A stretch of DNA of 64,000 nt, from contig CAIIXF020000009.1 in the NCBI GenBank assembly GCA_903813345.2, positions 35,147,759 through 35,211,758 of the forward strand, in the 5' to 3' direction. Shown here one piece after another: positions 30,301 through 57,300 of this stretch. The position numbers were made by a program, and so were the translations under genes. The first letter of the stretch is position 1, and every line of letters starts with the position of its first letter. A model generated the notes under the pieces. That model was given only the letters and a program-made list of their open reading frames with translations. It was not told where the DNA came from and ran no database searches. Source of the stretch: Owenia fusiformis (taxonomy: Eukaryota > Annelida > Polychaeta > Sabellida > Oweniidae).

Positions 30301-33300
30301 TTTCTCTGACAAGATGTTTCCTAAAATTTCTTACGTTTTTTCTCATTATACTGTATTTTGGCCTGAAAATGTCTAGGACTTACTGTGCATGTCTGCTTTA
30401 TTTTTTACCGCGGAAGTCTGACTTTTATATTTGTTTCCTTTAATGTTTCTGTATTTCTCTTTTGTTTTTGGAATTTTTGGGTTATTTTTTATGGGATGTT
30501 GTATTATGATATCATTGCTATCGACCAGTGTGTAGAACTGGCAGTTTTTATCGCCACATGGTACACCTGATGGATAAGGCAAAATTGAGAGATTTACGGA
30601 GATAAAGGACATTCCTGAAAAAGAAACAATTTTGCTTCAAAGAATTCGAACTTAGCTACAACCTATAATCAGCTTAAGTCAAGATCTGTAACTTTGAATG
30701 GAGAAAATGTGTTCTCTACAAAAAACACATCGGAAACATCTGGAAAAATACTGAATGAATTCCGAACTGTTGAAATTTGTTGAAGAAAATCGGCACTGAT
30801 TCTGTAAATCACGTCAAAGATTGAACAGAAATTCCTGGTGTTAGAAACAAGGAGTTTGGAGAAGCTATATTTAGATTTTAAGTAGTTGTACTGCGTAGAA
30901 TTTTATTTAGATGGTTGATCGAACACACGGTGTAGAATACAGTCAGTTGGCTGCAAAGTTAAAATTAGAACGCACCCGGATTATTTCGAGTTACATGATG
31001 GCGTATTGGGCTTGGACAGAAGTGAGTTATTATTATACAAATGATATTTTCAATAAATCATACAGAATTGGATTATAAAATTCAAGTATATTTAATTTAT
31101 GTTTATTATGAGCTTAATTTTAGGATCTCCGTATTTCACTCTTACTAAGAATTGGTGATTACAATAGTCATTCTGTCAAGGCATTTTTATGTCACCACCA
31201 AAAAGGGGTGACATATTGTTATGGTCTCCATTTTTTGATGGCGGTTGGTGGTTGGCAGTTGGTATCTTAAACAAATGGTGGTGACATTTTTGCATGTGAA
31301 TGCCTTGTTTAAATAAGTGATGGGGAGTTATTTTTAATATGGCACACGGGAAACAAGAGAAACTAGGAGGATTTTACTATTTGATTTAACTTTGTTTCAA
31401 AGATGGCAGCACCAGTCCTGTAGCTGTAGCATTGGGAATTTTTTTCACAGTTCTTGATCTATCATCCAATGTTTTTAAAATGTTTATACTACACAAGCAA
31501 GTTTGTGTCAGTTAGGTAGTGTGTTAACTCTTGTATATTTTTTCTCAATAAAATATTCGCCTATATACTGTGATATAAGCATGGAACCAGTTTAAGGGAA
31601 GCATTCTTTAGGATAATCTCTTTCATTGTAAGATACAGGAATCTTTCCATGTATCTCTTAGAGATTACATGAATCAGACAGTGACATATCAGAATTACCA
31701 CTCTTGGAAAATACTTATTTATTGAGCTCTGTTAGCTTGTCCATGGGCTATCCATCAGTCTCCTGAAAGCCCATGGCTGTTCCCAGCATTTTGATGATAA
31801 TTATGAAAAGGAGGTTTTCAATATTTCTAAATATATATTGAAATTAAGAATTGTGTATTCTGTTAAGAAGAGATCTACCTTTACATTTGAAATTCACATA
31901 ATCTTTGCTCCCAAATAATAGTACCATAATAAAAGTACCATTGTAAATCATTGTTTCACCTTATTTAGGGGTCATTGTTGTAAATGCGCCTATCAACATC
32001 TAAATAAATGTTATCTATGTAGGAATGTAGGATTGCATTCTATACAGTGTTTTGGGATAACACCAATAAAGGTTTATCAATGAGTTTCAAGGTGCCAGAT
32101 ATTGTTGGCATTTCTTATGGCATTCTCTTGCAGCCAGATGGTGGCTGGTATCTTGGTGGGTTGATTGATTGCTTGTTTACATGGCAAGGAAGGCTTGTGA
32201 TTATGACCACCTCTTCTTATGCTAAAGAATATATACATGCAGTCCCAATTGGTCTATACTTTACATGTATTTTAATGTAAATGTATTGCACTGCATGCAT
32301 GTCTGAATTTAAATGTAAGATAGTTTAAGAGAAATGTCTGTTTTCAAGGTTAGAATGATAAATAAAGGAGGAAATATCCCTGGATGCTTTTATCAATTCA
32401 ATGTTATATTCCAATGGAGGAAATATCCCAGGATGCATTTGTCAATCTAATTTTATATCAGACAGGAGGAAATGTCCCAGGATGCATTTGTCAGTTCAAG
32501 GTTATTAGCAATTCATCCCATCATCTATCATTCCCCTTATCTGTTCACCAACATGGAGAAGTCAGCAATATTTCACTCAATTGGCGCCACAAATTGAGCG
32601 TAGTCATGAAATTACTTTTACTGAATGAAATACTGAATGTATAAAATATGTTTTGCATTGTACCTGTCATGGTAGTTATGATGGTAGCTTGGTAGCTAGA
32701 TATTTTCACTGTTGATGTAAAGACACATTTTTCAGTGTGATTTGTTTGACAGAACTCTAGTTTCTGTCGTAAATATTATTGTTCTGGTAGCACACTGTTA
32801 ATTACATTGAATTCTTAATGCTGTTGTTTGATGACTGAGCTGGAGTTTATTTCCTATTTATCCACTGAAGATATATAAAAAATAGATTTTATTTGACAAT
32901 TATAAGATAACAATGCATTTCCTATGATAGCATAATCATCTCGAGTAAGAAGTTCACTTTAAGGCGATGAATAAAATTATTTGGCATATGTTTGAATCTA
33001 AATTGCATTTGGGAATTTTCTTTTGAATGATTGTGGCACCTTAGGATTTCATATAAGAAATGTCTTGTTTGATACATATTGGACATAACTGGTTTATGCT
33101 ACATGTATTTTGACATCCAAGTTTGGACATTTGCTTCTTGATGGTCTAGAATTGAGTTTTACTGATTTAAAGATTGCAAGTTTGTTTAAGGGTAATGGTT
33201 GAGATAGTTCTGATACTATAAATACTTGAAGTGTTATATAGTGTAGCACTATCAAGATCAGGTATTCTGCTTCTAGCAAAACATCATTCTTGCCAGCTAG

Positions 33301-36300
33301 ATAAGCAAACACGGATTTCTCATCTCTCATCAGCTACCTGTAATATACACTCCTCATCATAAGTTTGGAACACTGATCTCTCCATAGAGTGAGGCTTAAA
33401 TTTGTTATTGCATGTGTGATATGTATCTTTAGGAGCGCAAGATTTCTCCTGATCCTTCCTTTGACCAACATGCTAGCCAGGCCTCGAAATTAGCATTGTG
33501 AAGGTAGTGATTTGCTACCTGTTTTACCAAAAACACTACTCACACAAAAACACACTCACAACAATAAGAATAAAGTCACTCTTATTAAAATCATCAGTAC
33601 CTGCTTATCTCAAATAGCTACCTGGAAAATTCACTAAGTAGTGAAACAACTACCTGATAAAAAAAAGCCTGCTAGCCGTAACATTATAGTAAAACCTATA
33701 TTGAACATTTCTTGCCGAGACAAAATGTTCAATGTTCAAAGGTGTTCACTACAGAAAGGGTAATTTCTACAGAAGTCAGTAGAGTATGTGTGGAGGAAGA
33801 CAGGTGTTCACTAGAGAGAGGTGTTCACTAAGACAGGTTTTAATATATTATCATATCTGATAGAATTTTGAACTGAGATGAACTTTTGAAAGGAAGTGTA
33901 TTAACCTGAAGCTTGTCTGTACAGATATATTGAGGGATCAGATTGACTTTGAAAGTTAAGTACATGAATAAACACCAGCATCATTGATTGTCTACCTACA
34001 TAATAGATGATGTAAAATTCAGAGAAAAGAATTTGTATGAGTTATTTTCTTCATATTGAACTTCCATTTATATGATTGTGATTCTATTCTGACAATTAAG
34101 GAATTAAGCATGGTTCCAAACTCACAGCTGTTGACTGCCAATGGCAATCCCTTTTCACTCTTGGCAATGAACTTGGAAAACTAAGTTGCCTTTGGGCAAT
34201 GGACCGAATGCCAATAAATGTATATTGAATCGGGCAATCATGTTTTAGCCTTATTTGTGAACTCTAGAATCTAGAAAATAAGTTGCCTTTGGACATTGTT
34301 CAATTGGACAATTATGTTAGTTAAACCTTATCCATGAATCCTGGTATAAATATTAAACCTTTGGCACATCCTTCCTCCTCTGGCTCAGCTCAGTAATCTG
34401 CCCAATGTTAGACCCTCCAGTTGCTGTACAAGAAACATGCCACCCTGTTAAATCTGTTTATATCCTGTCAAAAGTATGAAATATTCTGATGTTTTGACCT
34501 TTTCAATAGTTGTATATATCTTCTGAGCTTTGCCTATAGTAATTATAGCTCTATCCATTGTAATTCAAGGTACCAAAACAAGTTATATCGTTTGTTGAGA
34601 AAAAATTTAAGGAGATCACTGCTATAAATAAATGTTAGATAGAATGTTTGATAAAATCTGGTTATCACCTTTTTAGGATCACTTTGTTAAAACCACTTCT
34701 GTACATGGCTTAACTTTAAAACACGAGGAATCGAAATGTCTGAATTCAAACATAGAAAATAATCTGACTGAACATCTGAACCCGGGAAAATATCTGCCAA
34801 AATTTTGTCAGATTCCAGTCTGATTTACAGGTAACCGATCCATCAAATACAACTAACTTTCACAAAATCTTAAGTTTCCCATGCTCTAATTAGGACATTT
34901 TGGTAGTATTTCCCCCTCAATTAAGAATGGATCATTACGGGCAAGTATTTTTTATGATGGTACGGCCAGCTTATTAATTTTGGGGGAAATCATTGAGGGG
35001 TTTCATCTTCATGTGATCAACAGGTTTTTACATTTCAGTAGATTACTCTTTGGTAAAACATGAAGGTTGCCATGGTGAATTACATCATGGCAGATTGCAG
35101 ATATTTTTAGAAATCTTCAGTTATTTTGGTACAGAGCCTGGGCTTTGAGTTAACTGATTGATAAAAGATGACTTTATATGTGCTGTTACCATGGTTACTT
35201 AGGTTTTCATTTAGCATAACTGCTTTGTTACTGTTACATATGATTGATCTCATGCCATTTAGTGTTGATTATAGAGGGGTGAACCCAGAGGACCGGAGCC
35301 TAATATATTGTAGATGAATCTCTCTTTTAAGAAGCAAAACATATAATAAATCAAAGCCTGAGTAATTGTAGAAAGTCCCCCTTTGTCTTTACATTATACA
35401 TAGTCTTGCATCAAGTTGAGTTGAAGAATAGAATAGATAGTAGGGTGACCGGAGACTTAATGCAAGACTTTTTATAGGTTTGAAATCAGAAATCACCTAA
35501 TTGTTATTTTAAACTAATATATGTTAAATTGTATTTTTCACGACAATAAAGCAATTTAATCCCACATTGCAAATATAAGTCTCACTTAGACTCCGAATGA
35601 ACCGAGGGGCTAAATATTTACATGTCTCTCTTTGTACATTTTGCCTCAATGGCATTCTCTAATATTGAGTTATTTAAACACCTTATAATGTGTTATAGTC
35701 TGAATTTGTAGTCGGAAATCGTGAATAGCTTGTATTACCTTAACATGCAAAAAATTATAGAATCGCCACCGTAAATGAACAACTGGTCTTGTTTACGATT
35801 TCTCTTCAGTTATTTCCCTCATTGATACAGTATAGGTATATATGTGATTGTACATTTAACAAAAAAAACTATTTTCTTAATTTTTCATTCTTTCTCACTG
35901 CTTGATAATTAATGAAATCAATTAGTTTGCTTTCCTTACAAATTGAAAAAGTTGTTTGAAATTGTCCTTTGTAAAAGTTCCAAATTAATCATTTGATTTT
36001 ATACATCTCCTTGCGTTTCCATGGCAACCTCTGGAAACAAACCAAACCCATTGCATACCTGTTTAACTATGTCATTTCCTGATTGTTTTCTTACACCTGT
36101 TCTTTAATTGTTTTAATGGTTAATTATAAATGTTATGTAATACCATTTGTCATTTTATACCAGGGTTGTTTGTTTTTGAACCCTGTTGAGAGGGTTCATT
36201 CAGGGTTAGATTGGACAAGTTTGAAGTGTTTGCCCAATGCTCTCCATTTTGCCAAAATGTTGACTTTGAATTTCAACATAGAATGACATCATATATGTTT

Positions 36301-39300
36301 AACTGGGGTGTCAAAGACTAGAAACATAAATGAAGCTTACATGATTTTTTCTCATTTGAGAGGGCACCAAGCAAAATTTGAGAGGGTGGTATATGACATG
36401 TATAGTTCTATTCTGTATATATGTGCAGTAAAACCTGTCTAATCCAAACATCACTACGATTGACCAAAAGTGTTCAGATTAGGAGAGTTCACATTTTCAA
36501 ACATCACTACAAAGTCGATTGTGATTGGAAGATGTTCACATTTTCAAGTTATCTTAACATGATGGTCTATTGGAGAATAAAAAGATTTGGAACCAAAACA
36601 TTTGAATAGAATAGAAAAGGTGTTTAGATTATATAGTTGTTCAGATATACATGTATAGATTTTACTGGACATGTATATTCCTGGTGTAATCTTAAGACTC
36701 CCAATAGTTCTTCATTGTTTCTTTACCTACTTCATTTTCCATTAATAACTTGATGTTTACATGTATTGAGGCCACCAATGGTTAAATCAGTAAAGGAGCA
36801 TGGGGTTGTCTTGTTTCAAATCATTATATTACTCCTAATCCAATCCCTCTATATTCATACATTGATATATTTTCAGTTATCGTGGTTGATCTTTTGTTTT
36901 CAAATGGAAGAATTTCCATATATCTGACAGTGCTTTATTCATTGAAATCCCTGTGGCACATGGCGTATCAAATTAATGCATAACGCCAATTTTTTTTTCT
37001 TTGATGATTAGTATGCCCCTATGATAATGCACATTAGGTTGAAAAATATAATCTAAACCTTAAAATGTTGCACCAAAAGTTTCAAAGTATTGGAACGACT
37101 AAAGACTACTGAATTCTAAAATGGTATGCTAGAAAAATAAATCTTTGACAGAAAATAGTCATCAGAATTTCACATACATGAGTTGTTAATACCTCGCAGT
37201 ATCTAATTAGAGCCCCATGGTCTGTTTACCGAGTCTATTTACATCGTGAGTGATTTTGTATGTTCGTTTTCTCCATTCTGTTTATTTAAATTTATTTTAC
37301 AATCTACAGTACTATGTACTTTGCTAACACTGAGTAACAGGCTTATAAATGTGAATACCATAATTTATTGACATTATTTGCTATACTATTGATAACAAAC
37401 TATCAATTCATACTTTGACATATTTTTATCGGTTATGATTTATCAACACTGTTAATATCAAACATAGACATAAATTGTTTGCGTAGTAGAGGTTACTGGC
37501 CAGCAGTCCAGCTAGCCAGTGTCTTTATTGATTCCCACAAGTTCAATATCAGAGTGTCGGTAAATCACTCTTGGGAGCCTTGCAGAGTGTATACACACTG
37601 ATCCAATATGGCTGCATCTTTCTAGTGGATTATTTCGAGCACTGGATATTTTCGTAAAATTCTCAAGGTAGGTTGAAAATTAGTGTTGATATTTGAAGGG
37701 GAGTTGTAGTTTATGTTATATTGTTTGATTCTTCATTGATCACGAGGGTTGTTATGTCTTTGTATTCTCAGAAATTTAGTGTTTTGTTTGGAGGTCTCGA
37801 TATGAAAATAACATTGCATGTCTTCTGCTTTGATCGGCAATATAATATTACATGGGGGATTGGAATAGATAAATGGGCATATGATAACAGTGCTTTGTTC
37901 TGGAATAAGAATTTCATTGACGTTTCATAATTATTGGGTAATTTAGTTGAATAGCAGTAATAATGTTATTAGATCATTATTGTCAGACAGTTGCTGTTGT
38001 CGTAGCATTTGTTTTTGTCATTGCTAATTGCATATTGCGTTCCGGAGGATTATAACAATGCATTAATGCAACAAGAAATGATGTTTACCAAAGTCAATAG
38101 ATCCCATAGCCTTTCACACATTCAAAGGTATTTTAGGCTCTAATTGTGATTTCATTTTGTATATTAGTCTTTCACCCCTCCTACTCCAATTGTCTTCAAC
38201 TATATATGGAAACAAGGTTCAGAAAATTAAGTTTAAAATGTTATCCCATTTGATATAATTTTTCCATGACATTTTCGACAGGGAAATATCAGTGTCAGTT
38301 TTACAAGGTCACATTGACTCTTTGTAAGGTTAAAGTACTAAACGGATTATGATTATCATGTTATATCTGTCATACATACCACTTCAGACAATTTCTCATT
38401 CATTTCCCAATCAAATAACATCATACTCAGCAATCAATCAAACAGGAATTGCATAAAATTCAATCAGTCAAAGAGCAAATGAAAAACTGTCAGTCAGATA
38501 CATTATGTAAAGTAGAACAATCCCAAAAGGCTCATGGGCCAAGAGTATGGCACGCAGTCTTGGTTCATATCATTTAGACACCCCCCCCCCCATCTGAATA
38601 CCTCTGTTCTACAAGGTGAAGTAGATGGTGGGGGGGGGGTCTGGAGACTTGATGCAAGACTAAATGTTGTATTTTGGGATGGATGCAGTGAAGATGGGTG
38701 CATTTCTTTTTCTGGTGGTCACAATTAATTTGAACTTTTTGTTGAATTATAAAAAATGTATTTCCTGGGGATAGATGCACTATTTGGTTTTTATTATGTC
38801 TTTGTCATCTTCTTATTGTTATATTTGGCAGATGTTCACTGATGTTTCTATATCACCAACATCAATATCATAAATCATATCTTTAAGAAGTAATTAACAT
38901 AATATTAAACAGCAATTGATTTTTTCATTGTGGTCAATAGCGTTTAACACTTCCCTATGGGTTATTGTCTTAATTAAAACAAGAGGAGCAACTAGGGAGT
39001 AAAAGAAAACTATTGATTAGGAAATAAGAAAGGTTAGACAAAGAGAAAAAGTATATGAGTATCCATCCTTCATTCAAAGGACATCATTTATTACTCAATT
39101 CATTATTATGGAAAGAAGTGAAATACCCTCGGACCAAGGATGATGAGTAGTGCCATGGTAGTTAAAGAATTACGTCCCCTGCAAAGCATCCCAAATTAAA
39201 AACATCAAATAGCTGAACATAAAATGATTTGTTTTGCTGTTCGTGTTTTTTGCTCATTGAACTTACTCTCTCTACTTAACTTTTTTATGTTGATAGATTT

Positions 39301-42300: not shown

Positions 42301-45300
42301 GAGTGCTTTGTCTACGTATTGTACTACTAATAGGTTCTGATCCTCATAGTAGCTAGTGGTATTATCAGTGAATAGATAATAACAAAGATTTGGGATCCAA
42401 ATTGGTTGCCTTATTGGACAACACATGGGACATCACATGGTTCTAATGGGAGACCAAAATCCTTGAGAGTTGGCCTCCACTCCATATTCCTTTACATACC
42501 CTTGGTACAAGACTTCAAAATGATGAGTGAAATTTCTCAGGTGTGCTTCATGAATCATGCATTGAGAATAAAGCTTCAATGATAAAATAGATGCAGTATT
42601 TTCAAACAGAATATATTCCATTGTTATTTTGAGGTCAACATCTGTTATTGTGTTTTTCAATTAATACGAGGAATCGATAAGTGAAATTCATGCATGCTTG
42701 ATTGAAGGTCTCATGTACTGTAGTATGCATCTAACATATATATTACATTGTAACATATTGAAATGGCAGTTATTTTAATCAACTTCGGTTGAAACAATCA
42801 TTTCACATCTCATGAATTTAAGTGATGTCATCATAATGTTTGTAGTTTATAATTAAAAACTTAGATCAAATGGGATATTTCCTGGGACTTTGTGGAAGCA
42901 TCATTCTTCCTAAAAGGACTTTATTTATGCTTGAATTCAGAAAGAAGTGAAATACCCTTGGACCACGGATGGTGTGATAGATTGATATTGATCGATGTTT
43001 CATTCATCTATAGCATTTTAACGTGATATTGACACCAAAGAATAATAATACTTTATGTCAGGTATCAATTGTAGAGCATGATTAATTATTATGGAATCAT
43101 ACTCAATAAACATTTGATATCAAATGAAAGAACTAGCCTTTATAATTGTTTGATATTGTACATTTAAAAGAGAGCTTCGTCTGTTCTCTTTGAGAGATAA
43201 GCCTCACTTAAGCAGAACATTAAGGTATCCAATCTAAATAGCTGTCACAAAATTCATGTTTTCATTAATGAATTTAGAAGGGATCTTTTAGTCACAAATC
43301 TGATGGAAAATATGAATTTCATCCCCATTAATAAGAGAGGAGGGAGAGGGGAGGTAGAGGGGGAGTGGGAAGAGATGCTACTACACTGAGTATATGGCAT
43401 TGTTATAGTTCTGACTATCATGTTTTTATGTTATTAACATTATTTAATTATAAACACAGCTGTTTAGTATCATGTCTTAGGAAGTCAACTTGCCCCAGCA
43501 TCTGTATTTCATACTTAGTTGATCGCTATTCAATATAATAGTGCTATAAGATATCGTTTTTTGATAATTACCATTTTCAAATTCCCAAATTGCAAAAGAT
43601 CGAACATTAGTCTTGATTAAGTTGTTGTAGATCAGGGGGTCCAGGGTCTAGATGCAAGACTAGAACATTATAAAATTAGAGAATTGGGCATATAATGACT
43701 AACTCTTTACTGAAGGACAAATCATCTAGTGACTGGAAGATTATGACTGGAGTGGCCTATCTCCAGAAACTCAGAATTTCTTTTGAACAGACACTTGTGC
43801 AGATCTAAGCATGAATCGGCTGTTTCTAACGTTGTATTCATTCAGATATGGTTTTTATGTTTACCCAAACAACTAAATATCAAGAATGTGTGTAGGCAAT
43901 TCATCATCATTGTATACTTGGCTATCAATGGTTGTTCACTTTCATTTACATAAAGGGTGTTAAAAAGACTTGATAAAAGACTCAATGTTGGACAATCAAA
44001 AGTAGTATCATAGTTAGTGTGGTAAAAGTATCCTTGTTATAGAAGTACATTTACATTAACAGTAAACCCTGTTTTTACCATCCTGACAGAACACCACTCT
44101 CTTAGACAATTGCTTGGTGCCAAATTCATAAAGTAGGACAGTATAGTAAAACCTGTATATGTGAACACCTCTTTAATCTAGACACCTCCCAATGTGAACA
44201 CTTTTCCCTCTTTAAATTTTGTAAATTCTCACTAACATGTGAAAAACATGAATTGTGAACACCTGCTAATTTGAACACTTTTGGCTAGTTCCAGTCATGA
44301 TCAGATTCGATAGATTTTGCTGTTTTTGTATATTAACCTGTATAGTGAACATTTGTTCATTATAAACAGTCTAAATTGTTGAATATTTCTAAGCTTTAAA
44401 TATAAAATAGCATAAGTAGAAAACAAAGCACTTATTTATCATTTTTAGACACATTCCCCTAAAATTCATATTGTTTGTATTTTTATCGCACTTTGAAAAA
44501 GTGCTATATTGTCGTCGTCTTGTGCTGTTGGGCGGGCGTTTGGGCGTACGGGCGTGCGGGCGTGCGGGCGGGCGGGTGGGACATAAACCAAATCTTGTCA
44601 TCAAATTTCCAGGATAACTGCTTACCTGTTCAGCTTGAAATTTTTACAGATGCAAGAGCAGACTAGTACCAAGATCTGATTAGGTTAAGGGCATGCTGGG
44701 TAAACTACATGGCGGCCATTTTGAATTTTTCAACAAATCTTGTCATCAAAATTCCAGGAAAACCACTTATCCGTTCAACTTGAAATTTTTACAGATGCAA
44801 GAGCAGACTATTGCCAAGATCTGATTAGGTTTTGGGTATGCTGGCTGAATTACATGGTGGCCATTTTGAATTTTTCAATTTGGCGGCCATTTTGAATTTT
44901 TCAACTTGCTCCAAATTGACCAAATTTTTTTTTTAAAAACATCTACCAGTTCTCAAAAGTTCAAATCTGACCTTAGATTTCAGATTTGACCTTTCATTCA
45001 CCTTCAGTGACCTTGAAAAGGTCAAAAAAATTGATTTTCTAAATTGATATTTTGGATTTAAATTTAGGTCAGCTTAATTACAAAACACCTACTGAGGTCT
45101 GAAAAAGTGAAATTTTCAAGGTCGAAGGTCAAGGTCATTAAACTAGGTCACAAATGATGTTATCCAAGTTTCTCAAAGTTTGAGACTACAAATCAATTCT
45201 TGTCATCAAAATTCCAAGAAAACCGCTAACCTGTTCAACTTGAAATTTTTACACATGCAATAGCAGACTAGTGCCAAGATCTGATTAGTTTAGGGCATGC

Positions 45301-48300
45301 TGGGTAAACTAGGTGGCGGCTATCTTGAATTTTTCAACAAATCTTGTCATCAAAATTCCAGGAAAACCACTTATCCGTTCAACTTGAAATTTTTACAGAT
45401 GCAAGAGCAGACTATTGCCAAGATCTGATTAGGTTTTGGGTATGCTGGCTGAATTACATGGTGGCCATTTTGAATTTTTCAATTTGGCGGCCATTTTGGA
45501 TTTTTCAACTTGCTCCAAATTGACCAACTTTTTTTTAAAAAAACATCTACAAGTTCTCAGAAGTTCAAATCTGACCTTAGATTTCAGATTTGACCTTTCG
45601 TTCACCTTCAGTGACCTTGAAAAGGTCAAAAAAGTTGATTTTCTAAATTGATATTTTGGATTTAAATTTAGGTCAGCTTAATTACAAAACACCTACTGAG
45701 GTCTGAAAAAGTGAAATTTTCAAGGTCGAAGGTCAAGGTCATTAAACTAGGTCACAAATGATGTTATCCAAGTTTCTCAAAGTTTGAGACTACAAATCAA
45801 TTCTTGTCATCAAAGTTCCAAGAAAACCACTAACCTGTTCAACTTGAAATTTTTACACATGCAATAGCAGACTAGTACCAAGATCTGATTAGGTTAAGGG
45901 CATGCTGGGTAAACTACGTGGTGGCCATCTTGAATTTTTCAACAAATCTTGTCATCAAAATTCCAGGAAAACCACTTATCCGTTCAACTTGAAATTTTTA
46001 CAGATGCAAGAGCAGACTAGTGCCAAGATCTGATTAGGTTTTGGGTATGCTGGCTGAATTACATGGTGGCCATTTTGAATTTTTCAATTTGGCGGCCATT
46101 TTGAATTTTTCAACTTGCTCCAAATTGACCACATTTTTTTTTTAAAAACATCTACAAGTTCTCAGAAGTTCAAATCTGACCTTAGATTTCAGATTTGACC
46201 TTTCGTTGACCTTCAGTGGCCTTGAAAAGGTCAAAAAGTTGATTTTCTAAATTGATATTTTGGATTTAAATTTAGGTCAGCTTAATTACAAAACACCTAC
46301 TGAGGTCTGAAAAAGTAAAATTTTCAAGGTCAAAGGTCATCAAATTAGGTCACAAACAATGTTATCTAAATTTTCCCAAAGTTCAAGACTACAAATAAAT
46401 TCTTGTCATCAAAATTGCAGGAAAACCGCTAACCTTGTCAACTTGAAATGTTTACAGATGCAAGAGCAGACTAGTGCCAAGGTCTGATTAGGTTTTGGCC
46501 ATGCTGGGTGAATTGCATGGTGGCCAGTTTGCTCTTCAAAGTGCGATATTTATCACTGTGTGTCTTGTTGAATTCAGGGAATAGGTTAAAATAATACTGA
46601 TGTACTGTACTGTATCGTGAAAAGGATTGATTAGGATTTTAGATTAGGATTCATACATATTCAAGTACCTACTGTACCCGTCTACAAAGAACAATTTGGC
46701 ATTTTACTCAAATAGACTGCATGCTTAGCCTGATAGATAGAATTCTTCTGAAATAACATGCCATTTTGTGGTATTTAGCTCTACTACAAATGACTTGGAT
46801 TTCCATTACATCGATTTAGGTTGTTGTTTTGTTACCCATTCAGTGCAATGCTAGAATTACTTAATACATTGATGTTGATACCTTTTCATGGCTTCATCCA
46901 TATATAGAAAAGTGTAGAATACCTAACTCAACTATGGACACCCTGTAATTAATACATTTGAGCAGGAAATCTGAGTGGTTAAAACAAAACTTTTACTTTA
47001 GAAGAGTTTTTGAAATGCCATGGTAACACCTACAAGGGTTGCTATGTTTAATTGGTTGGTATGGTAATATGATGCCAGTGTTTTCATGGTAACAAGGTCA
47101 AGTATCTGACTTGGAGATTCACCTCAAGTTGTCCTCAAAGGAAGCTCAGTAAATCACCTTAGAGTTGTTGTAATCTAATTTAGATCAATGACAGTTGAGT
47201 CTATCTTGTTTATATCAGTTCATTTCATTTCATTCATGGTTCATCTCATACTAATATGCTTTTATTTGTGTGTAAACTACATATTATCACATGGGTGAAA
47301 ATGGGAACCTATATAGGATGGGACAGATAGAAAAAATTGAAACATAATGGGCTTAGTTCTCCTTACTCTTAGGTCTACATGACACACCTACATTGTTATT
47401 TGACCAAATAAAATGTAAATAGTTATAAAAACAACCCATCTGCCATTCTGTTTCCATCCATCCGTCGGTTCCTCTGTTTCAGTCAGGTTTGCTGCTCTGG
47501 GGAGCAGTATATGTAAAAAGGCAGATTTGTGGTCTTCCTTATCATTGTTGAATGTTGCACTTTGTGAACTACCATTACAATCTCTATCTAATGAACAGTC
47601 ACAAGGAAATTAAAATGGGCACACAGACCATGCCTCTCTTCATTAATACTACTATGCATGGGCATCCCCAGGGGGGTGTATTGGGTATGACTGCAGCTAA
47701 TCCTGGGGATTTCATTCATGGTGCTGAGGAGAAGGAAACTTGGAGGGAAGAAGAAGTTAGAGGTGGAGAAGTTCAAGCTATGATAATGGGGACTTTTTTT
47801 TAGCTAATTGGCTGTTTGTTTGAAGCTATTGTATTGCTGAGGATTACCTCTGCCATTAATTAGAGAAAGGATTTAAAAACTATCTGTTGCATGACAGTTA
47901 TTCAGGATATGCAGTTCCAGTTAATCTTAGGCTTACTTGGGTTTCTTTAAATCCTGGAATTTGTGTGGTTCAAGTTGATTTCTACCAGATGTGACCTGAG
48001 GGGTAAACACTCAGAACACACTTTTGGTCTATGCTGAATATATTATGTTTGAAGCTTCTGCAATAGAATGCAATGCATACATACACTAATACCGGTATTA
48101 GATAGGTTTTTCAAAAATTATGAAGATGGTTTAAGATGAAGTAGGAAGGAAACATTTACCACTGGCATTAAACATTAAAGGGAATTCTTTGATAAGTTAT
48201 CTATGCTCAAAGTGTGGTACATAAAAAGGAAAAGAGAATGAATACTATGGATGAGAAATCTTGAAAATGTACAAGGTAAGATGTGAATGACTGCTGCAGT

Positions 48301-51300
48301 AGTGAACTAACTGAAGATAATTTATATACAAAACTCATTGAATGGATGACTTTATTTGCTCATGTTTGTGCATGATATACAAGTTTACTTGGTGTGCACC
48401 ATCTGGCAGCCATCTTTCCATGCTATGAGTTCAAAGCTCTAAATCTTGGTAATAAGAATTGTTTTTGACCAAAACCAATCAAGAGAATATGAATATATAG
48501 GTATATACTAAGGTCATGCATCATTTTGCCAGCTTGGAATTCTCCTTATTTCACCACTTTACTGGCCAAAGTTGGCTATTAGGTCATTTCTGGTCAGTAT
48601 GAAAGAGCTTGTAACTACAAGTTATAGATCTTGATTCATAAGGTTTATGTAACATGTTCTATAAAATCATCTTGGTGCATAACTTAGTTACCTCATCTGA
48701 AAAATGGTAGAGAATATCTCCCTTATACCAATGTGCTTTTTATACATGGTGAGGAACTAGATAATAGAAAGACTAGAAGCTCATTTTATATTACTTATTT
48801 TACTGTTTATTGACCCAACTTAAGTGCAGTTTGGGACCTAGTAGGGCTCCATTGATCATCTCATACATATGGTCGGTTTCAATATAAACAGTTTTATGAT
48901 AGTCTTTAGGTTTGAAGAAGATTTAGTAAATAAATAAGAGAGATTGATTGTACAGACTCATATTATTGGAATCGTTTCTGTGCTTTTTATGAAGGTTATA
49001 ATAATATTGAGGAACTTTATTGTAAATTGGTAGAAATGAACTTGCACAATTCCCAGTTGATATGAATGAGTCTATTAGAAATATTGCTTGAATTATAAGC
49101 AGTAGATTGTCATTGTTTCTGACTCATTGGGGAATATAATAACAATGTGACGTTGTTGTTCTTTTAGCTCCAAAATATGCCATAGTCGATATCTAGTACT
49201 ATATAAATAGAAATTGAGCAATTAGTTATTTTATTGACTTTAGTTTCATATCACGAAATTATATTTTAATCAGTACAAAGAACTAGTCTAAGATTTTACA
49301 ATATTCTCTAATAATAGACTGTATTGTATAATACTTAAGATAATATTATTCTTATTTGAGATTAATTTTTTCTATTTTCAGCTCAACCCAAATAGCAAGG
49401 CCTGCAACGAGGGTGTGAAACTGGGTGATATCGTAGAAAGTATTAACGGACAAAGTATACAAGGCTACCAATGCAAAAATGCATTAGATCTCATTAAAAG
49501 TGCCAATCAAAAACTGGTCCTAGAATTAAAAAGGTAAGCGCATGAATTTCTGTACAGTGAACACCTAGGCAGGCCTCCTAGTCTTCAACTAACTTGGTCA
49601 TCAGTTCTGACCTTGTGAACTATGTTCCTTCAACAGGAACCATGGCTCTCGCAACGCGAATATTGATTCTTTAGTCGCGAACCACCAGTTCACCTCTCCC
49701 GAACATATTTCTATATGGTTGAGGACTAAAGAATCGATATTCGCTTTGTGAGAACTGTGGATCGCGAGGTTGGAACTAATGATCGCATTAGTAGAAGTCA
49801 AGGAGGCCTGAGGGCCAGAAGAATAGGTAGGTGGTCACTTTTCAAAGTTTTGTGATATTTCCATCTGTTTTCCCATATTGCTCAATTTCCATATGTTTTA
49901 AGACCAACATATTCATTTTTCTTGCTAGGGAAACCATGTGTTGCCAGGCTTTGATTGAGAAATCTATTCTTGTTTCAATAAACTATTCCAAATTCTATGA
50001 TTGTTGCCAGGTTTTATTACATAGAAGCATATACTATAAATCTCATTTCATTTTCATTACTTTCCTGGAGTTAGTGTGACCTAAATGAATGGTTTGAAGG
50101 AGTCTTACGCAAGATACCTCTGCATAAACAGTCAAAATGATTCTACAAAATTTTGACATCAAATGAGCTATTGATCTTACAAATATATTTCATTATTAGG
50201 TAATTTGTTAGGGATTTTTTTGTAGAATCGTTGTTTCTTTATGAGCACCTTTGAAAATAAAGAAAACCTGTGGTGAAATATTCAGAACTTTTGTAAATGA
50301 AGGTTTTGATGTTAGATTCCATGTTCAAAACAGGAAACTGGGGCATACACAATGTCTATATTGGGATCATAGAATGATGCTCTTTAAAGAGATGTAGACA
50401 TTAATATGGAACAGAAGCCAAGATTAAACTATTTTGGTATTCCATATGTGAGATTTGCATCCCCTTGTTTCAGTATATTTCATTAGATGCATGGTACAAT
50501 ATTACTATCACCCAAAGTAATGTGTAGAAAAATACATCTAGTATATCATATTAAAAGTTGATTGAATATTTTCTTCAAAGTTCAAGAAATCAACTGAACT
50601 CAAAATAAATCTAATTAAATCTCAAAATAAAGCTTTTGAGGAAAATGTGAAATGTGAAAATGTGTCTAGCTACACCCATTATAGTTAATGACAAAAATAA
50701 ACTTAAATGGACTCCCAGGGAATTCAGGCACCATATCACATTTATAGGATGTCCGTTTGAATGTTGAACATTAATGTTTCATACTTAATCACAATTAAGT
50801 AGAATCAAGTCACACTTGCAATGTCAATTTGACACTAATGACAATTGGTATAAAAGTTTTTTCTAAAATCACTTACAACCACCGGTTTGTTCTCATGATC
50901 TTTGATAACCCTCCTACAATATTGCTTAATAAGCTCCTTTTTCTATTGAATCAATCGTCTTGTTGGTAGCTTATCAAAAAGTTCTTATCACTCAAAAAAC
51001 AAAGAAACTCTGTTATCTGGGTGTGAAAATTATGAAAAAATAAAGAAAGAACATTGAAAAAGGTGCATCTTATATACTGGGTGGTCTAGAAGTTGGTTTA
51101 CAGTTACAATTTACAGATGGATTGTTAAGTAACCGTAAATCTATTTTTGGGCACCCTGTATATCAAATCATTGACTTCAAGTCTTACTTTAATAATTGTC
51201 ACCTAATAAGTATTAGATAATATTTTCATTGATACAGTGTATTCACTTCATCCCTTGTCTTGATCCCATATAGATATTTAAAATCATCATAATTATCATT

Positions 51301-54300
51301 AATTGATGCATGACTAGTACAGGGTGTCTACTATAATCCCCCTTGACTAAAATGTGGTTGGTTTAATACAGAAAACAACAATGTCGTTTACTCCCCCCCA
51401 TTAATTTATGAAAAATAAGGGGTAGTGGCATTTATATTGCAGTAGACACCCTGTATATTTCAGTATTTCAGTTTGACCTCATTTTCTCTTGTTTATTTCC
51501 AGTGGTGATTCAAGTATGAATGGCCAAGTTAATGGAGATATAAAACACAGTTTTGTCTCAAACAATAACGAAGGTGAGTTAATGAGCTATGTAACTAAAT
51601 ATTGTGGATGTAAATTAACTTAAGGTGATGATATATCGATTTACATGATCATTTTTTTCCCAAATTGACTGTATATGTTACAAGTTACGATTTGAACTTT
51701 ATTTACGTCTTTCCTACTTTATGGACTTTACTGTTTCAGAACTTTGTTTATTGATATGATTTGGCATTTATAACATGTAAAATAAAACTGACCATCTCAC
51801 AAGTTCTTGTGGAAGCAAAATAACATGCTTTACCTTTAATGAACATTTATTCACATTTTGTAGGTAAATATATATTCTAACTGAGAGCAGTCCCTGCCCA
51901 GAGTGTGTATTTAACTTACTAACCAATCTTATTTTGTACTTTAGAATTATAGTCATAGAATGTACATGAACCTAATTCTCCAGTTTTATTCTCTGAAACT
52001 TCCCACCTGACCTTGGAAATCCGAAATGCACAAACCTAATAAATGAACCATATACAGATAGTAAAAAGCATAAGAGTACATACTTATAATTTACCACAGA
52101 AAATGATACTATAAGTATACATGAACTAAAAGATTCTCAAGTTCATTTATTTTAAGATATACGCAAGTGGCTGATTCACTTACGTTCTATGGGAACGAGA
52201 CAATTAGTAAAACGTGAATTGTAACAAAAATGGGACTATGTTAGTGGTTTCAAGTAGCATCCATGCCTCAGTGCGATTAGAAACACCATAAATTCAAGTT
52301 AAATATATTTTTACCATAATCTTATCACCGTACATGGACCTTGCTATGTTTTTACCCACGCAATGCTGTGGTTGCAGTGTTTGTTGAACTATCTTCTCTG
52401 TTTGAGCTTTTTGTGGCATATGAATCAAGATCCAGGGTACTCTATAATGTTCTTAGGAAATGTTTTGTAAAATTTGTCATTTTTGGATTCTTGGACTTTA
52501 GCTACATAACACATTTGGATATGAATTTCACAATGGAGGTATACTGAGATGTTTTACATGGCAAACTAAGCATTTTTGGAAGTTTTTAATTAGTAATCAA
52601 AAGGTATAAACTATTTTTTTGTTTGAAGCAATTTTTGGTATTATTCCTTTATGAATAAGTAGGTATTTATCTGTAGAGATTTGATATTTTGAAAAAAATC
52701 TTAAAGAATATCTTGTCATCAGATCGATTAAAATTCCTAATTTGATAATATTTTCTTGTGTACCTTACCTAATATATAGGATTAAGAATATATAAGTGTT
52801 AATAGGATAAACTCAGAGAAAATTGCATGATTGTATTCATGTAAAAAGTTTGACATTGAGTTTTATTTCGCTAACCACAGATGTTATCATGAAGGTAAGG
52901 ATAGAGCCACACCTCGCTCTAATATTTAAGCATAGATAGATCTTGTAAATGTAAATGTTCCTCACAGACATTTTATTTCACCCCACTCTCAGTTATACAT
53001 ATATATATATAACTTTTATTGACATATTGTATCATAACATGATTACATTAGTCATATACAGTGCTTTGTTCTTATATGTCTTGTCATTATTGTGGTCATA
53101 ATTTCAATTTTATTTCTTTTTACCAAACATTTAGTAAGCTTTCATCATTTTGCATTACATTCTGTTACCATATGTTTTTTTTATAAAATCAAATTTTATT
53201 CAACAAATATATTCACACCTGTATAAAATCAACTGTTTTACTATTTCTACATCTTATTGAAATGTAGAAATCAACAAAATCAGAAATCATGACCATTTGA
53301 AAATCTCAGATTCTGTAGACATCGATTTGATGAGTATTCAATAATTGATAATAATGCAGAGTTCATCTATTTCTACTTTCTTATATAATAGGATTAAATA
53401 ATTCGTGCAACTTAATGGACTATCCCAGATATGTATTGATTATCCAACAATATAAAGGTTTATGATGATTATAACTTTTAATTATGTAATTATTATTTTC
53501 ATATTGAATGTGATCCAGAATTTCTCCAGAGCTTCCATAGGCCTTCATTAGAATATGAATGTAAATTATTGTTAGGAAATAATGTGATAGGCAGAAAATG
53601 CTTAAATTTTTAATCGTAGAAATATGTTAACTTAAAGATGAGTGCTTGCCGTCTATGTTGAACTATTGCAAAGTGTAACAAATTAACAGAAGTCATGTAT
53701 TTCATCAGAGGTACAAAATATAAATATAGATCCAACTCCTGATGTTATATATATTCTTTATACTTGGAACAGTGAAAATCATGTGAAATGTATTTTATTA
53801 TACTCTGTTATCTAGCTTTCTAACCAACTCTTATTTTATTTTGTGTATATTTGCATCAAGATTGTCCCCAGCAAGTAATTCAAGAGACACTCTGTCTTCC
53901 ATTTGAAGCAATAGGACAATACAGCCTAACACAGTCTCAAATGTTCAATTAGAAAATTGGTGCATATAAATGATTGAACAATTGATGAATCATTTATGAA
54001 ATGTTTCATTCCATAAGTTCCTAGAAAAATTAATCAGGAACAAAACACCCATATTATCACTATAATCTTGATGTACATATAACCATGAACTTTATCGTTC
54101 TGTTTTATCTAGCTTTTGTTTTAAACATAACAGGGGAAAAGAAGTGTGAAAGAAAATGTACAAGTACAACACTAATACTATCGAGTCCCTTGAGTCCAAC
54201 CCTCGGACAGAGCTCCAACTTTAGGCATATCCCGCCACCTAGTATGTTGTTTTGTTTATCCGAATGTATGCCCTGAGAAAGGGGGCCAACCATTTGATCT

Positions 54301-57300
54301 TACGGGACCTAACTTTTTTCGAAAATATTTTTGGACTAAACATTCTTGTAAAATAATTAAATGGCATGGTTTGAAAAGCGCTCAGTAAGATTACAAAAAA
54401 TTCAGGTTAATGTTGAAATAATTAGGTTTCGCTAAGAATCTATGGTGGCCCCTAAATGATGGCTTGGGTCCTAGCTGTGTCCCTCCTACCAACATGCAAT
54501 GTAATATACTCAAACAGTAAAAACATCAAATATGTGAATATTTAAATATTTCATGAATCTTAAATGTTTTTACTTGTTTAAGTGATGTTATATCAACCCT
54601 GAATATTTATTGATTGCTGTTTCACTCTCAAAATATAACTTGCATGAATCATTTTGCTAATCCAGCTCTAAGTAAAAAGGGGAGAATAACTCTGGTTATA
54701 TTCTTGGAAACATAAATACTCAAATCGATCCATAAAGGTAAATGGGCTACTAACACCAGTTGGGAAAGTAGTATGGGATTATGGGATGTAACCCTAACAA
54801 CAGAAATGAATTATGGGATATGAGGGAGTGAAAGCCTCGCAATGGCTTGCATGATTACCATGCCCTGTTTGCTACGATACCACCCTTGTATGTAATTAAT
54901 AAAAATGCTTAAAATAAACATCTTGATTCTGTTTTGATTTTTAGGTGGAGTTATTATATGAATTGAAATGCATTTGTATAATGATATATGTAATGTGCTG
55001 AATGTGTATGTGTCAAAACATCTATGTATTTTTTGTCCTGTTCACGTGCTTGGAGTAATTATTATATATACATGTATTGTCTAAGATGATGAATGTTGAT
55101 GTGTGTCTTGCCTTTAGGTGAAGCCTCCATGTCATCTGTAACCCCTAGCAACGCCATGTTTAACCCATCTGTCAACCAATCACAGAACAGCTCTCATTTT
55201 TCGCCTTCCAAAATATATACGCCGCAAAAATCAGCTTCAGAAAATATGCCAATAGGTGTCGCTTCAAGTAAAGTCTGGTCGCCTTTTGGTCAGTGCCGTC
55301 TGCTTGTCTTTTTACGTCTGCTGTGACATCATCATAATCTGTCTGTGTGTCTTAATAGTCTTGCATCAAGTTTTTGAGTTTCCCAGCTATTTTCTCGTGT
55401 AACATTTTGTCATGGATGTTTGTGTCATAGGAAATGTACTGTACCAGGACTTGATGCAAGACCACAGGGTGGGCCAAAAAAGTAATAAGTGGAAACAATG
55501 TTTCATCCTTTTTTGGCTCACACTGTATACTTACATTACTTACAAAATGTAACATTTATCAGGAAATGTGAATGCCTCGATGGATGTTTCTAACTCAGAT
55601 ATGTTATGTTCTGGCCATTATTTAGCATTAGTACTAATACTCGGAGGTATAAGGCATGCATTTTGTGTTTTGTCTAAAATGTGTTTTGAAGTAATATAAA
55701 AGAGTAATAATTATCCCATCGAACGAAGTTCGGAGGGATATAGGGAACGCCTCCGTCCGTCCGTCCGTCCGTACGTACGTACGTCCGTCCGTCCGTACGT
55801 ATGTCCGTCCGTCCGTACGTACGTCCGTCCGTCCGTACGTCCGTCCGTCCGTCCGTCCGTCCGGGCAATAATTCAAATACCGTTGGCCCGATTTTAGTAA
55901 TATTTTGTATACATATACCCTATGGGGGTAGAAGTTCTGCTCGAAAGCGGATTTTCAAAATGGCCGCTCATTTAAAAATGGTGGCCATTTTAGTGCCGAT
56001 TTTACAGTAATTTAGGTGCAATATGTAAAACTGTAATAGCAGTATGTTTTAAATGTAAAAAAAATTATATAGGACATTAATAAAGCTAGAAATGTAGATA
56101 TTAAAAAAGCACATGGCAGCCATCTTGAAAAAAGGCGGCCTTTTCTCGTTATTTTACGATTTTTGCTGTAACTCGAAAAGTAGTGGAGCGATTTTGTTCA
56201 TATTTGGTATGTGAATACTATAAGCATGGCACACTGTCTAATGACACTTTTGGTAGAAGGCGGCCATTTTGAAAAATGGCGGACATTTTGAAAAATGGCT
56301 GCCATTTTAACTTATTTTACTATAACTCGAAAAGTAGTGGAGCGATTTTGTTCATATTTGGTACGTGAATACGTATAAGCATGGCATACTGTCTAATGAC
56401 ACTTTTGGTAGAAGGCGGCCATTTTTCAAAATGGCCGCAAAATGGCCGCCATTTTAACGTATTTTACTAAACTCGAAAAGTAGTGGAGCGATTTTGTTCA
56501 TATTTGGTATGTGAATACTATAAGCATGGCACACTGTCTAATGAGACTTTTAGTAGAAGGCGTATTTTACTATAACTCGAAAAGTAGTAGAGCGATTTTG
56601 TTCATATTTAGTATGTGAATATTATAAGCATGGCACACTGTCTAATGACACTTTTGGTAGAAGGTGCCCCTTTTGAAAAATGTTCGATGGGATTCGCTAC
56701 GCTTTGGCGTTGCCGTTGTTCTGGTTAAGGTATTTGATAAGTAATGTAATGAATTAGTTTTTGTGGACTAATGATTGCTAATTTTGCAAAATAAGACTTA
56801 TTTTGATCCGTATTGTGTGACAAGGAAAAGTAATATTTGAGAAATAATAATATAATCTATAGCTAACACACTCACTTTTATTTTAATTTCACTTTATAGA
56901 CACAATTTATTTAACAGCAGGTTTTGTGATATTAAAACCAACAATGTGTGTGCATATTTACCAAATGTTGAAAATAAAACTGAAAAGTGCATTTCTCGAT
57001 TTTTATAATTTTAGAAACCTTTTAGTTCTTGCTCATGTACAAGTCAGTTATGTGAGAACAATTGACATTATGTTTCGCTAAAATAACTTTGAATTGGTGG
57101 ACTGAAATAATATTAGGCTTTTAACGCTTGAATATATTGGAAAGTTACATTGTTTCATTAAATCATCATTATCTACATCCACAGCTTTTTGGATCAGATC
57201 AATTAATGCTTTCATTGTTCAATATCGTGCCAGTAATAATGTCACCATAACCTCATAGTATATTTTACATTGAATTGCTGTCATTACAGGAAATGATATA

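What the first reader, a model, noticed from the sequence alone, without database searches (positions are those of the whole stretch)
31178..56693. Three unrelated repeats built to one plan: hairpin end, ATAT(T/A)G, microsatellite, filler, inverted end
H3 (31178-31307), H1 (44485-46547) and H2 (55713-56693) share no long sequence, yet each starts with an 11-13-bp terminal repeat that folds back on itself. ATATTGTT, ATATTGTC or ATATAGGG follows, then a short-period GC-richer microsatellite (GGTTG, GGGCG or CCGT type), then variable material and a perfect inverted copy of the terminus. H1 and H2 both also carry (G)GCGGCCATTTTGAA boxes. This suggests a class of non-autonomous elements defined by structure rather than sequence, perhaps replicating through a terminal hairpin and seeding microsatellites.
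Basis: partly seen in the sequence, partly recalled or inferred. Interest (0 to 1): 0.7.

Follow-up and report, generated by a model that had tools for sequence, protein, structure and literature searches.

The report
Three non-autonomous Helentron transposons (HINEs)
The three look-alike repeats are most likely ordinary members of a known class of rolling-circle jumping DNA (non-autonomous Helentrons), and for one of them a protein-coding parent element was found elsewhere in the same genome.

Summary
Elements run about 20-33 bp past the inverted copy to fixed ends (H1 46569, H2 56726, H3 about 31307-31309), seen in 20 H1, 18 H2 and most of 30 H3 loci. By itself the plan is not beyond chance in the window (32 of 200 shuffles reach three or more hits, microsatellite not required); copies settle it (H3 3' end 3793 sites, H1 3' end 510 sites, reversed-pattern controls 0). 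For H3 I found an autonomous partner: three 11.6-12.1-kb Helentrons with H3 ends and uninterrupted frames holding a Rep and an endonuclease-like domain (helicase tested on one: present). One sits inside an H2-type element, and three unoccupied relatives show insertion into a T-run without target duplication. The autonomous element's tandem array is homologous to H1's filler. Partners of H1 and H2, and empty sites for the window copies, were not found, so H1 and H2 are classed by anatomy and ends. New members of a known kind.

The parts
31184..31309 (+). H3: complete short HINE (about 120 bp), 5' end in the T-run 31184-31188, 3' end at about 31307-31309 (CCTTGTT)
   Evidence: most listed copies align from about query 40-48 to 163-184 of window 31140-31340; junctions printed for 30 loci, one of them the window itself
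31189..31214 (+). H3 5' subTIR ATGTCACCACCA plus fold-back GGGGTGACAT
   Evidence: sequence; stem predicted with DNA parameters, -9.0 kcal/mol
31240..31262 (+). H3 microsatellite-like GGCGGTTGGTGGTTGGCAGTTGG
   Evidence: sequence; longer GGCGTCCGGCGGTTGG-type arrays at the same place in the autonomous copies
31276..31309 (+). H3 3' subTIR TGGTGGTGACAT plus tail with GCAT-GTGA-ATGC stem-loop and CCTTGTT
   Evidence: 3793 sites of the family form of this end at up to 2 mismatches, control 0
44478..46569 (+). H1: complete HINE of about 2.09 kb with tandem central repeats
   Evidence: 5' boundary: 23 of 39 listed non-self copies start at query 37-39 (window 44476-44478); 3' boundary: 20 loci
44484..44504 (+). 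H1 5' subTIR TATCGCACTTTGAA and fold-back AAAGTGC
   Evidence: 7-bp stem, -5.6 kcal/mol
44532..44576 (+). H1 microsatellite, GCGGGCGT type
   Evidence: TRF
44589..46520 (+). H1 central tandem repeats (145-bp units inside a 604/605-bp higher-order unit)
   Evidence: TRF, autocorrelation; 83-84% identical over 143 bp to arrays in the three H3-type autonomous Helentrons
46535..46569 (+). H1 3' subTIR and 21-bp tail ending GTGTGTCTTGTT
   Evidence: same in 20 of 20 fetched loci, flanks differ after it except that two of the 20 share one flank; 510 sites in the genome, control 0
55708..56726 (+). H2: complete HINE of about 1.02 kb with central repeats of about 155 bp
   Evidence: 5' boundary from 8 loci, one of them the window itself; 3' boundary from 18 loci; repeats by TRF
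55713..55739 (+). H2 5' subTIR ATCCCATCGAAC and fold-back GTTCGGAGGGAT
   Evidence: -7.6 kcal/mol
55752..55863 (+). H2 microsatellite (TCCG)n with TACG variants
   Evidence: TRF, 28 copies, 90% match
56682..56726 (+). H2 3' subTIR GTTCGATGGGAT plus 33-bp tail with ACGC-TTTG-GCGT stem-loop, ends CTGGTT
   Evidence: same end in 18 of 18 fetched loci; fold -5.4 kcal/mol

Best explanation
H1, H2 and H3 are three families of HINEs: short, non-coding members of the Helentron branch of Helitron-like rolling-circle transposons. Each is mobilised in trans by a large Helentron protein (Rep nuclease, PIF1-type helicase, C-terminal endonuclease). The protein recognises the 5' subterminal repeat with its fold-back and the 3' subterminal repeat with its short tail, copies one strand, and pastes it into a T-rich site without a target duplication. 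Shown here: the anatomy; copy number; fixed ends; for H3, autonomous elements with the same ends and uninterrupted frames (Rep and endonuclease-like domain in all three, helicase tested and found in the one read in full); for one autonomous copy, unoccupied sites that fix both ends. Inferred from the Helentron literature: the rolling-circle, single-strand mechanism, the role of the hairpins, and the same mechanism for H1 and H2, whose own autonomous partners were not found.
For: Same order of parts as in published HINEs: 5' subTIR, complementary IR, microsatellite, variable segment, central repeats, 3' subTIR, 3' palindrome (PMC7492417, PMC4067079; passages). Fixed 3' ends beyond the inverted copy in 20 of 20 H1 and 18 of 18 H2 loci (chosen from the best-scoring hits) and in most of 30 H3 loci. 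510 H1 and 3793 H3 3' ends against 0 controls. H3 copies parsed by script: T before the 5' end in 21 of 25 and T after CTTG in 24 of 25 (5 of 30 loci not parsed, several of the 25 mis-parsed). Partner: the copies on C11, C6 and C10 are alike from an H3-type 5' end to an H3-type 3' end, and in the fetched flanks the likeness stops there; lengths 11,856, 12,117 and 11,609 bp; open frames of 2424, 2508 and 2576 aa, no stops inside the matches. The C11 frame matches Helitron_like_N 5.8e-26, PIF1 2.2e-24 and DUF6570 5.6e-13. Its C-terminal domain has 59 matches in the genome, 45 of them 2.9-5.2 kb downstream of a Rep match on the same strand. Unoccupied site: the C11 copy sits inside an H2-type HINE; L006, L008 and L002 read GTTGTTTTATGATATTTGC where C11 reads GTTGTTTTT[element]TATGATATTTGC.
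Against: No paralogous empty site was found for the three window copies: their joined flanks hit only their own places. The endonuclease call rests on Pfam scores below cut-off (PF14529 E 0.0067, PF03372 E 0.12), with no solved-structure match and a failed fold (mean pLDDT 36.9); 14 of its 59 matches have no Rep match upstream. H1's 3' stem-loop is weak (-2.0 kcal/mol, overlapping the subTIR). Not every H3 locus has the full 3' end: L063 matches only the 5' part and L062 has an altered tail. The structural plan alone does not beat shuffled sequence.
Confidence: 0.93

Rival explanations
1. A structurally defined, so far undescribed class of non-autonomous elements that replicates through a terminal hairpin and seeds microsatellites.
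For: The fold-back terminus, the ATAT box, the microsatellite and the inverted copy are real in all three.
Against: The plan is published for HINEs, the true 3' ends lie beyond the inverted copy, and the H3 partner encodes a Helentron-type protein. Microsatellites are already in the autonomous copies.
Confidence: 0.03
2. MITEs of cut-and-paste (DDE) transposons with ordinary terminal inverted repeats.
For: 12-14-bp inverted repeats at both sides and high copy number; Thomas et al. say that DINE-1-like elements were earlier annotated as MITEs (PMC4067079, passage).
Against: Asymmetric ends with a 20-33-bp 3' tail, no target duplication at the one resolved site, and the H3-type partner is a Rep/helicase element.
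Confidence: 0.02
3. Canonical Helitron1 derivatives (5'-TC, 3'-CTRR, insertion between A and T).
For: Same Rep/helicase superfamily (PF14214 and PF05970); no target duplication.
Against: Ends are CTTGTT, CTGGTT or CCTTGT, not CTRR; inverted subterminal repeats and a C-terminal endonuclease-like domain are present.
Confidence: 0.02

Closest known systems
Cg_HINE elements of Crassostrea gigas and the bivalve Pearl family (PMC7492417; passages)
   Same: subTIR normally of 11-12 bp, complementary IR shortly after it, microsatellite mostly of 4-base units (GTCY/GTCC in several, like H2's TCCG), variable segment, satellite-like central repeats, 3' subTIR and 3' palindrome, T-rich target, no TSD.
   Different: Sequences could not be compared (they are in supplements that I could not open). 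In C. gigas the authors could not link the HINEs to an autonomous Helentron; here H3 is linked.
HINE-Mo of Metaseiulus occidentalis and DINE-1 of Drosophila (PMC4067079; passages)
   Same: Palindromic subTIRs of 12-15 bp (HINE-Mo), 3' subTIR inside the 3' end with a palindrome after it, T-rich insertion without TSD, autonomous partners with Rep/helicase/endonuclease.
   Different: 3' tails here are about 20-33 bp; the paper gives about 38-60 bp for HINE-Mo.
FoHeli / Helitron2 elements of Fusarium (PMC5148889; passages)
   Same: Asymmetric terminal inverted repeats, hairpin at the 5' end with GAA between the arms (as in H1 and H2), 3' inverted repeat about 20-40 bp before the terminus.
   Different: The paper found no fungal Helitron with an endonuclease domain; the H3 partner has an endonuclease-like domain.

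Membership tests
Helentron / HINE | 11-15-bp inverted repeats that are subterminal, with a 3' tail beyond the 3' copy | tested here: met
   12-14-bp repeats; tails of about 20-33 bp by comparison of copies
Helentron / HINE | 5' subTIR palindromic or followed by a complementary IR | tested here: met
   predicted stems of 7, 12 and 9+2 pairs in H1, H2, H3
Helentron / HINE | palindrome / stem-loop near the 3' end | tested here: inconclusive
   clear in H2 (-5.4 kcal/mol), short in H3 (GCAT/ATGC, -2.9), weak in H1 (-2.0, overlapping the subTIR)
Helentron / HINE | insertion in T-rich/TT sites, no target-site duplication | tested here: met
   one H3-type autonomous insertion against three unoccupied relatives; flanking T in most H3 copies. 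Not resolved for H1, H2 or the window copies
Helentron / HINE | autonomous partner with the same ends encoding Rep + helicase + endonuclease | tested here: met
   H3 only: C11, C6, C10 copies; helicase tested on C11 only; the endonuclease part is below the Pfam cut-off
Helentron / HINE | autonomous partner for H1 and H2 | tested here: inconclusive
   not found; only rare end variants and part of the Helentron flanks could be checked
Helentron / HINE | rolling-circle, single-strand intermediate | not testable with these tools
   needs an assay; inferred from the family
canonical Helitron (Helitron1) | 5'-TC and 3'-CTRR ends, insertion between A and T | tested here: not met
   3' ends CTTGTT / CTGGTT / CCTTGT; inverted subterminal repeats present
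MITE of a DDE transposon | terminal (not subterminal) inverted repeats with target duplication | tested here: not met
   3' tail in all three families; no duplication at the one resolved site, of the H3 type

The most novel reading that the evidence does not exclude
Central satellite-like repeat modules move between HINE families that have different ends. H1, with its own termini, carries in its interior repeats homologous to the array of the H3-type autonomous Helentron. The H3-type 5' end, a hairpin followed by a T-run, is itself tandemly multiplied in at least two copies (C11 and L061), as if rolling-circle copying restarts at that end. One autonomous family would then seed both the filler repeats of other families and short tandem arrays of its own end.
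Probability: 0.25. Interest if true: 0.45.

Novelty: new member of a known kind. Interest (0 to 1): 0.27.

Why it matters
It files a puzzling set of repeats in a known superfamily and ties one very numerous family (3793 3' ends) to a protein-coding parent. Such a link was left unresolved for the oyster HINEs (PMC7492417, passage). It also gives a case of shared central repeats between an autonomous Helentron and a HINE with other ends, a testable route by which satellite-like repeats spread.

Tried and rejected
Structural scan of the window against shuffles: the plan alone is not significant, so it was not used as proof; the excess of fold-back pairs comes largely from repeats inside H1 and H2. 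Rfam: 0 matches. Endonuclease domain: solved-structure search empty, single-sequence fold useless (mean pLDDT 36.9); kept only as a weak Pfam match plus its regular position behind Rep. Search for H1 and H2 partners by rare 3'-end variants: 4 and 4 sites, none within 20 kb of a Rep match. Blast of H1/H2/H3 against 30 of 58 Rep loci and eight flank stretches of four Helentron families: the 30 Rep loci and the C5 and C6:36.03 Mb flanks gave no match. The C2 flanks gave an H2-type copy with both ends upstream of the frame and an H3-type 5' end with H1-like repeats downstream of it, both taken as separate insertions. The C11 flanks led to the H3 partner. Empty-site search with the joined flanks of the three window copies: only self hits. 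Spanning hits came from self matches with mis-parsed or shared ends, or were weak (one, 75% over 67 bp), and were not used. In one search the automatic alignment of L006 is untidy at the junction; the statement rests on the printed strings and on L008.
Full report
Observation. All three structures exist at about the given places. H1 has 14-bp inverted ends 44484-44497 / 46535-46548, H2 12-bp ends 55713-55724 / 56682-56693, H3 12-bp ends 31189-31200 / 31276-31287. Each left copy folds back, is followed by ATATTG or ATATAG, and then by a GC-rich short repeat (TRF arrays for H1 and H2; none listed for H3). The plan without the microsatellite criterion occurs 4 times in the window (the three, and one at 7382 on the - strand) and on average 1.33 times in 200 shuffles, with 32 of 200 reaching three or more, so form alone would not have settled the matter.

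Genome copies. The window lies in a held eukaryote genome of 498 Mb in 525 contigs, unnamed. The H1 3' end occurs at 510 sites (259 + 251) and the H3 3' end at 3793 sites (1891 + 1902) with up to 2 mismatches; the same patterns read backwards occur at 0 sites. The H2 5' and 3' ends gave 668 and 697 first-look candidates, of which 40 each were scored and matched.

True ends. In 20 of 20 H1 loci and 18 of 18 H2 loci (taken from the best-scoring hits, so biased to close copies) the sequence is shared to ...GTGTGTCTTGTT and ...GTTGTTCTGGTT and then differs; two H1 loci share one flank. Most of the 30 H3 loci (one is the window itself) end in ...AATGCCTTG followed by T or TT; a few have an altered or missing tail, such as L062 and L063. 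The elements therefore extend about 21, 33 and 20-22 bp beyond the inverted copy. The 5' ends start in or next to short T/A runs: H1 at 44476-44478 in 23 of 39 listed non-self copies, H2 about 55708 (8 loci), H3 31184-31189.

Comparison with the literature. The Cg_HINE description in the Pacific oyster (5' subTIR, IR complementary to it, microsatellite mostly of 4-base units and in several elements GTCY/GTCC/GTCK, a 10-500-bp variable segment, satellite-like repeats, 3' subTIR, palindrome, T-rich insertion, no TSD; passages of PMC7492417) fits H1 and H2 part by part, except that H1's 3' palindrome is weak. The mite HINE and DINE-1 descriptions (passages of PMC4067079) fit H3 too. Fusarium Helitron2 elements have 5' hairpins with GAA between the arms, as H1 and H2 do (passages of PMC5148889).

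Autonomous partner. A search for Helitron_like_N (PF14214) gave 58 matches in this genome and rang in 0 of 14 control genomes. Flank stretches of four families were fetched, for one family from three copies. In that family (C11, C6, C10) the copies are alike from an H3-type 5' end (ATGTCACCACCAAAAGTGGTGACATATTGTTATGGTCTCC) to an H3-type 3' end (AGGTGGTGACATTTTGTCATGTTAATGCCTTG), whose inverted repeats agree over 11 bp; in the flanks fetched the likeness stops at these ends, apart from another H3-type copy about 5 kb downstream of C11. They are 11,856, 12,117 and 11,609 bp long. The C11 frame (C11:29201684-29208955, 2424 aa, no stop) matches Helitron_like_N, PIF1 and DUF6570. An internal part matches Herpes_teg_N at 2.9e-6, and the C-terminus matches Exo_endo_phos_2 weakly (0.0067, below cut-off). 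The C-terminal domain used as a query finds 59 places, 45 of them 2.9-5.2 kb behind a Rep match on the same strand, so it is a regular part of these proteins, as the endonuclease is in Helentrons.

Empty site. The C11 copy lies inside an H2-type HINE. L006, L008 and L002, other H2-type copies (79-89% identical across the joined flanks), carry the uninterrupted sequence GTGTTGTTTTATGATATTTGC; in C11 the element interrupts it as GTGTTGTTTTT[ATGTC...CCTTG]TATGATATTTGC. Apart from T's that cannot be assigned, nothing is duplicated. For the window copies no empty relative was found: the joined flanks hit only their own places.

Link between H1 and H3. Behind its microsatellite the H3-type autonomous element carries an array with unit about 136 bp that is 83-84% identical over 143 bp to H1's central repeats, although H1 and H3 of the window share nothing detectable. 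Central modules have thus been shared across families. The GGCCATTTT boxes were not found in the C11 array (0), so the boxes common to H1 and H2 are not explained by this link.

Mechanism. By family knowledge the Helentron protein nicks at the T-rich element border, unwinds and copies one strand and joins it into a new T-rich site, using the hairpin-forming ends as signals; this predicts no target duplication and precise ends, both seen here. The rolling-circle step itself is inferred. Partners for H1 and H2 remain unknown.

Verdict. Known kind, new members; the added value is the partner of H3 and the shared central repeats. The species is not identified.

Noticed in passing
window 12712-13289: A 578-bp stretch with 70-bp perfect terminal inverted repeats, probably a MITE or fold-back element unrelated to the finding.
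   Followed up: no
window 14447-14955: A 19-bp perfect inverted repeat pair about 500 bp apart, possibly another small element.
   Followed up: no
window 9789-10106: Short open frame ending in GGGGAIAPIAPPPGYAHACVQDSHS over a 12-bp inverted pair with a GGGTGCGATCGCACCC fold-back; perhaps a dispersed repeat.
   Followed up: no
L061 1408-1631 and L115 832-927: The first ~45-50 bp of the H3-type element (hairpin to T-run) is tandemly repeated: two 48-bp units at the C11 autonomous copy, three hits in a row at C4:7960004-7960227. No leftover of an outer element follows in C11, so simple nesting does not explain it.
   Followed up: partly
L009-L037 (contigs C13, C515, C505, C158 and others): 33 of the 58 Helitron_like_N matches lie outside the twelve large contigs C1-C12, many with open frames near 3000 aa; C13 holds 6 and C515 holds 4. 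Recent expansion or a repeat-rich unplaced region.
   Followed up: no
L113, Helentron frame of C11, internal 172-aa part: A region scoring above cut-off for the herpesvirus tegument N-terminal family (E 2.9e-6), where Helentrons are reported to carry OTU-like proteases (passages).
   Followed up: no
window 32364-32505: Minisatellite of 49 bp, 2.9 copies.
   Followed up: no
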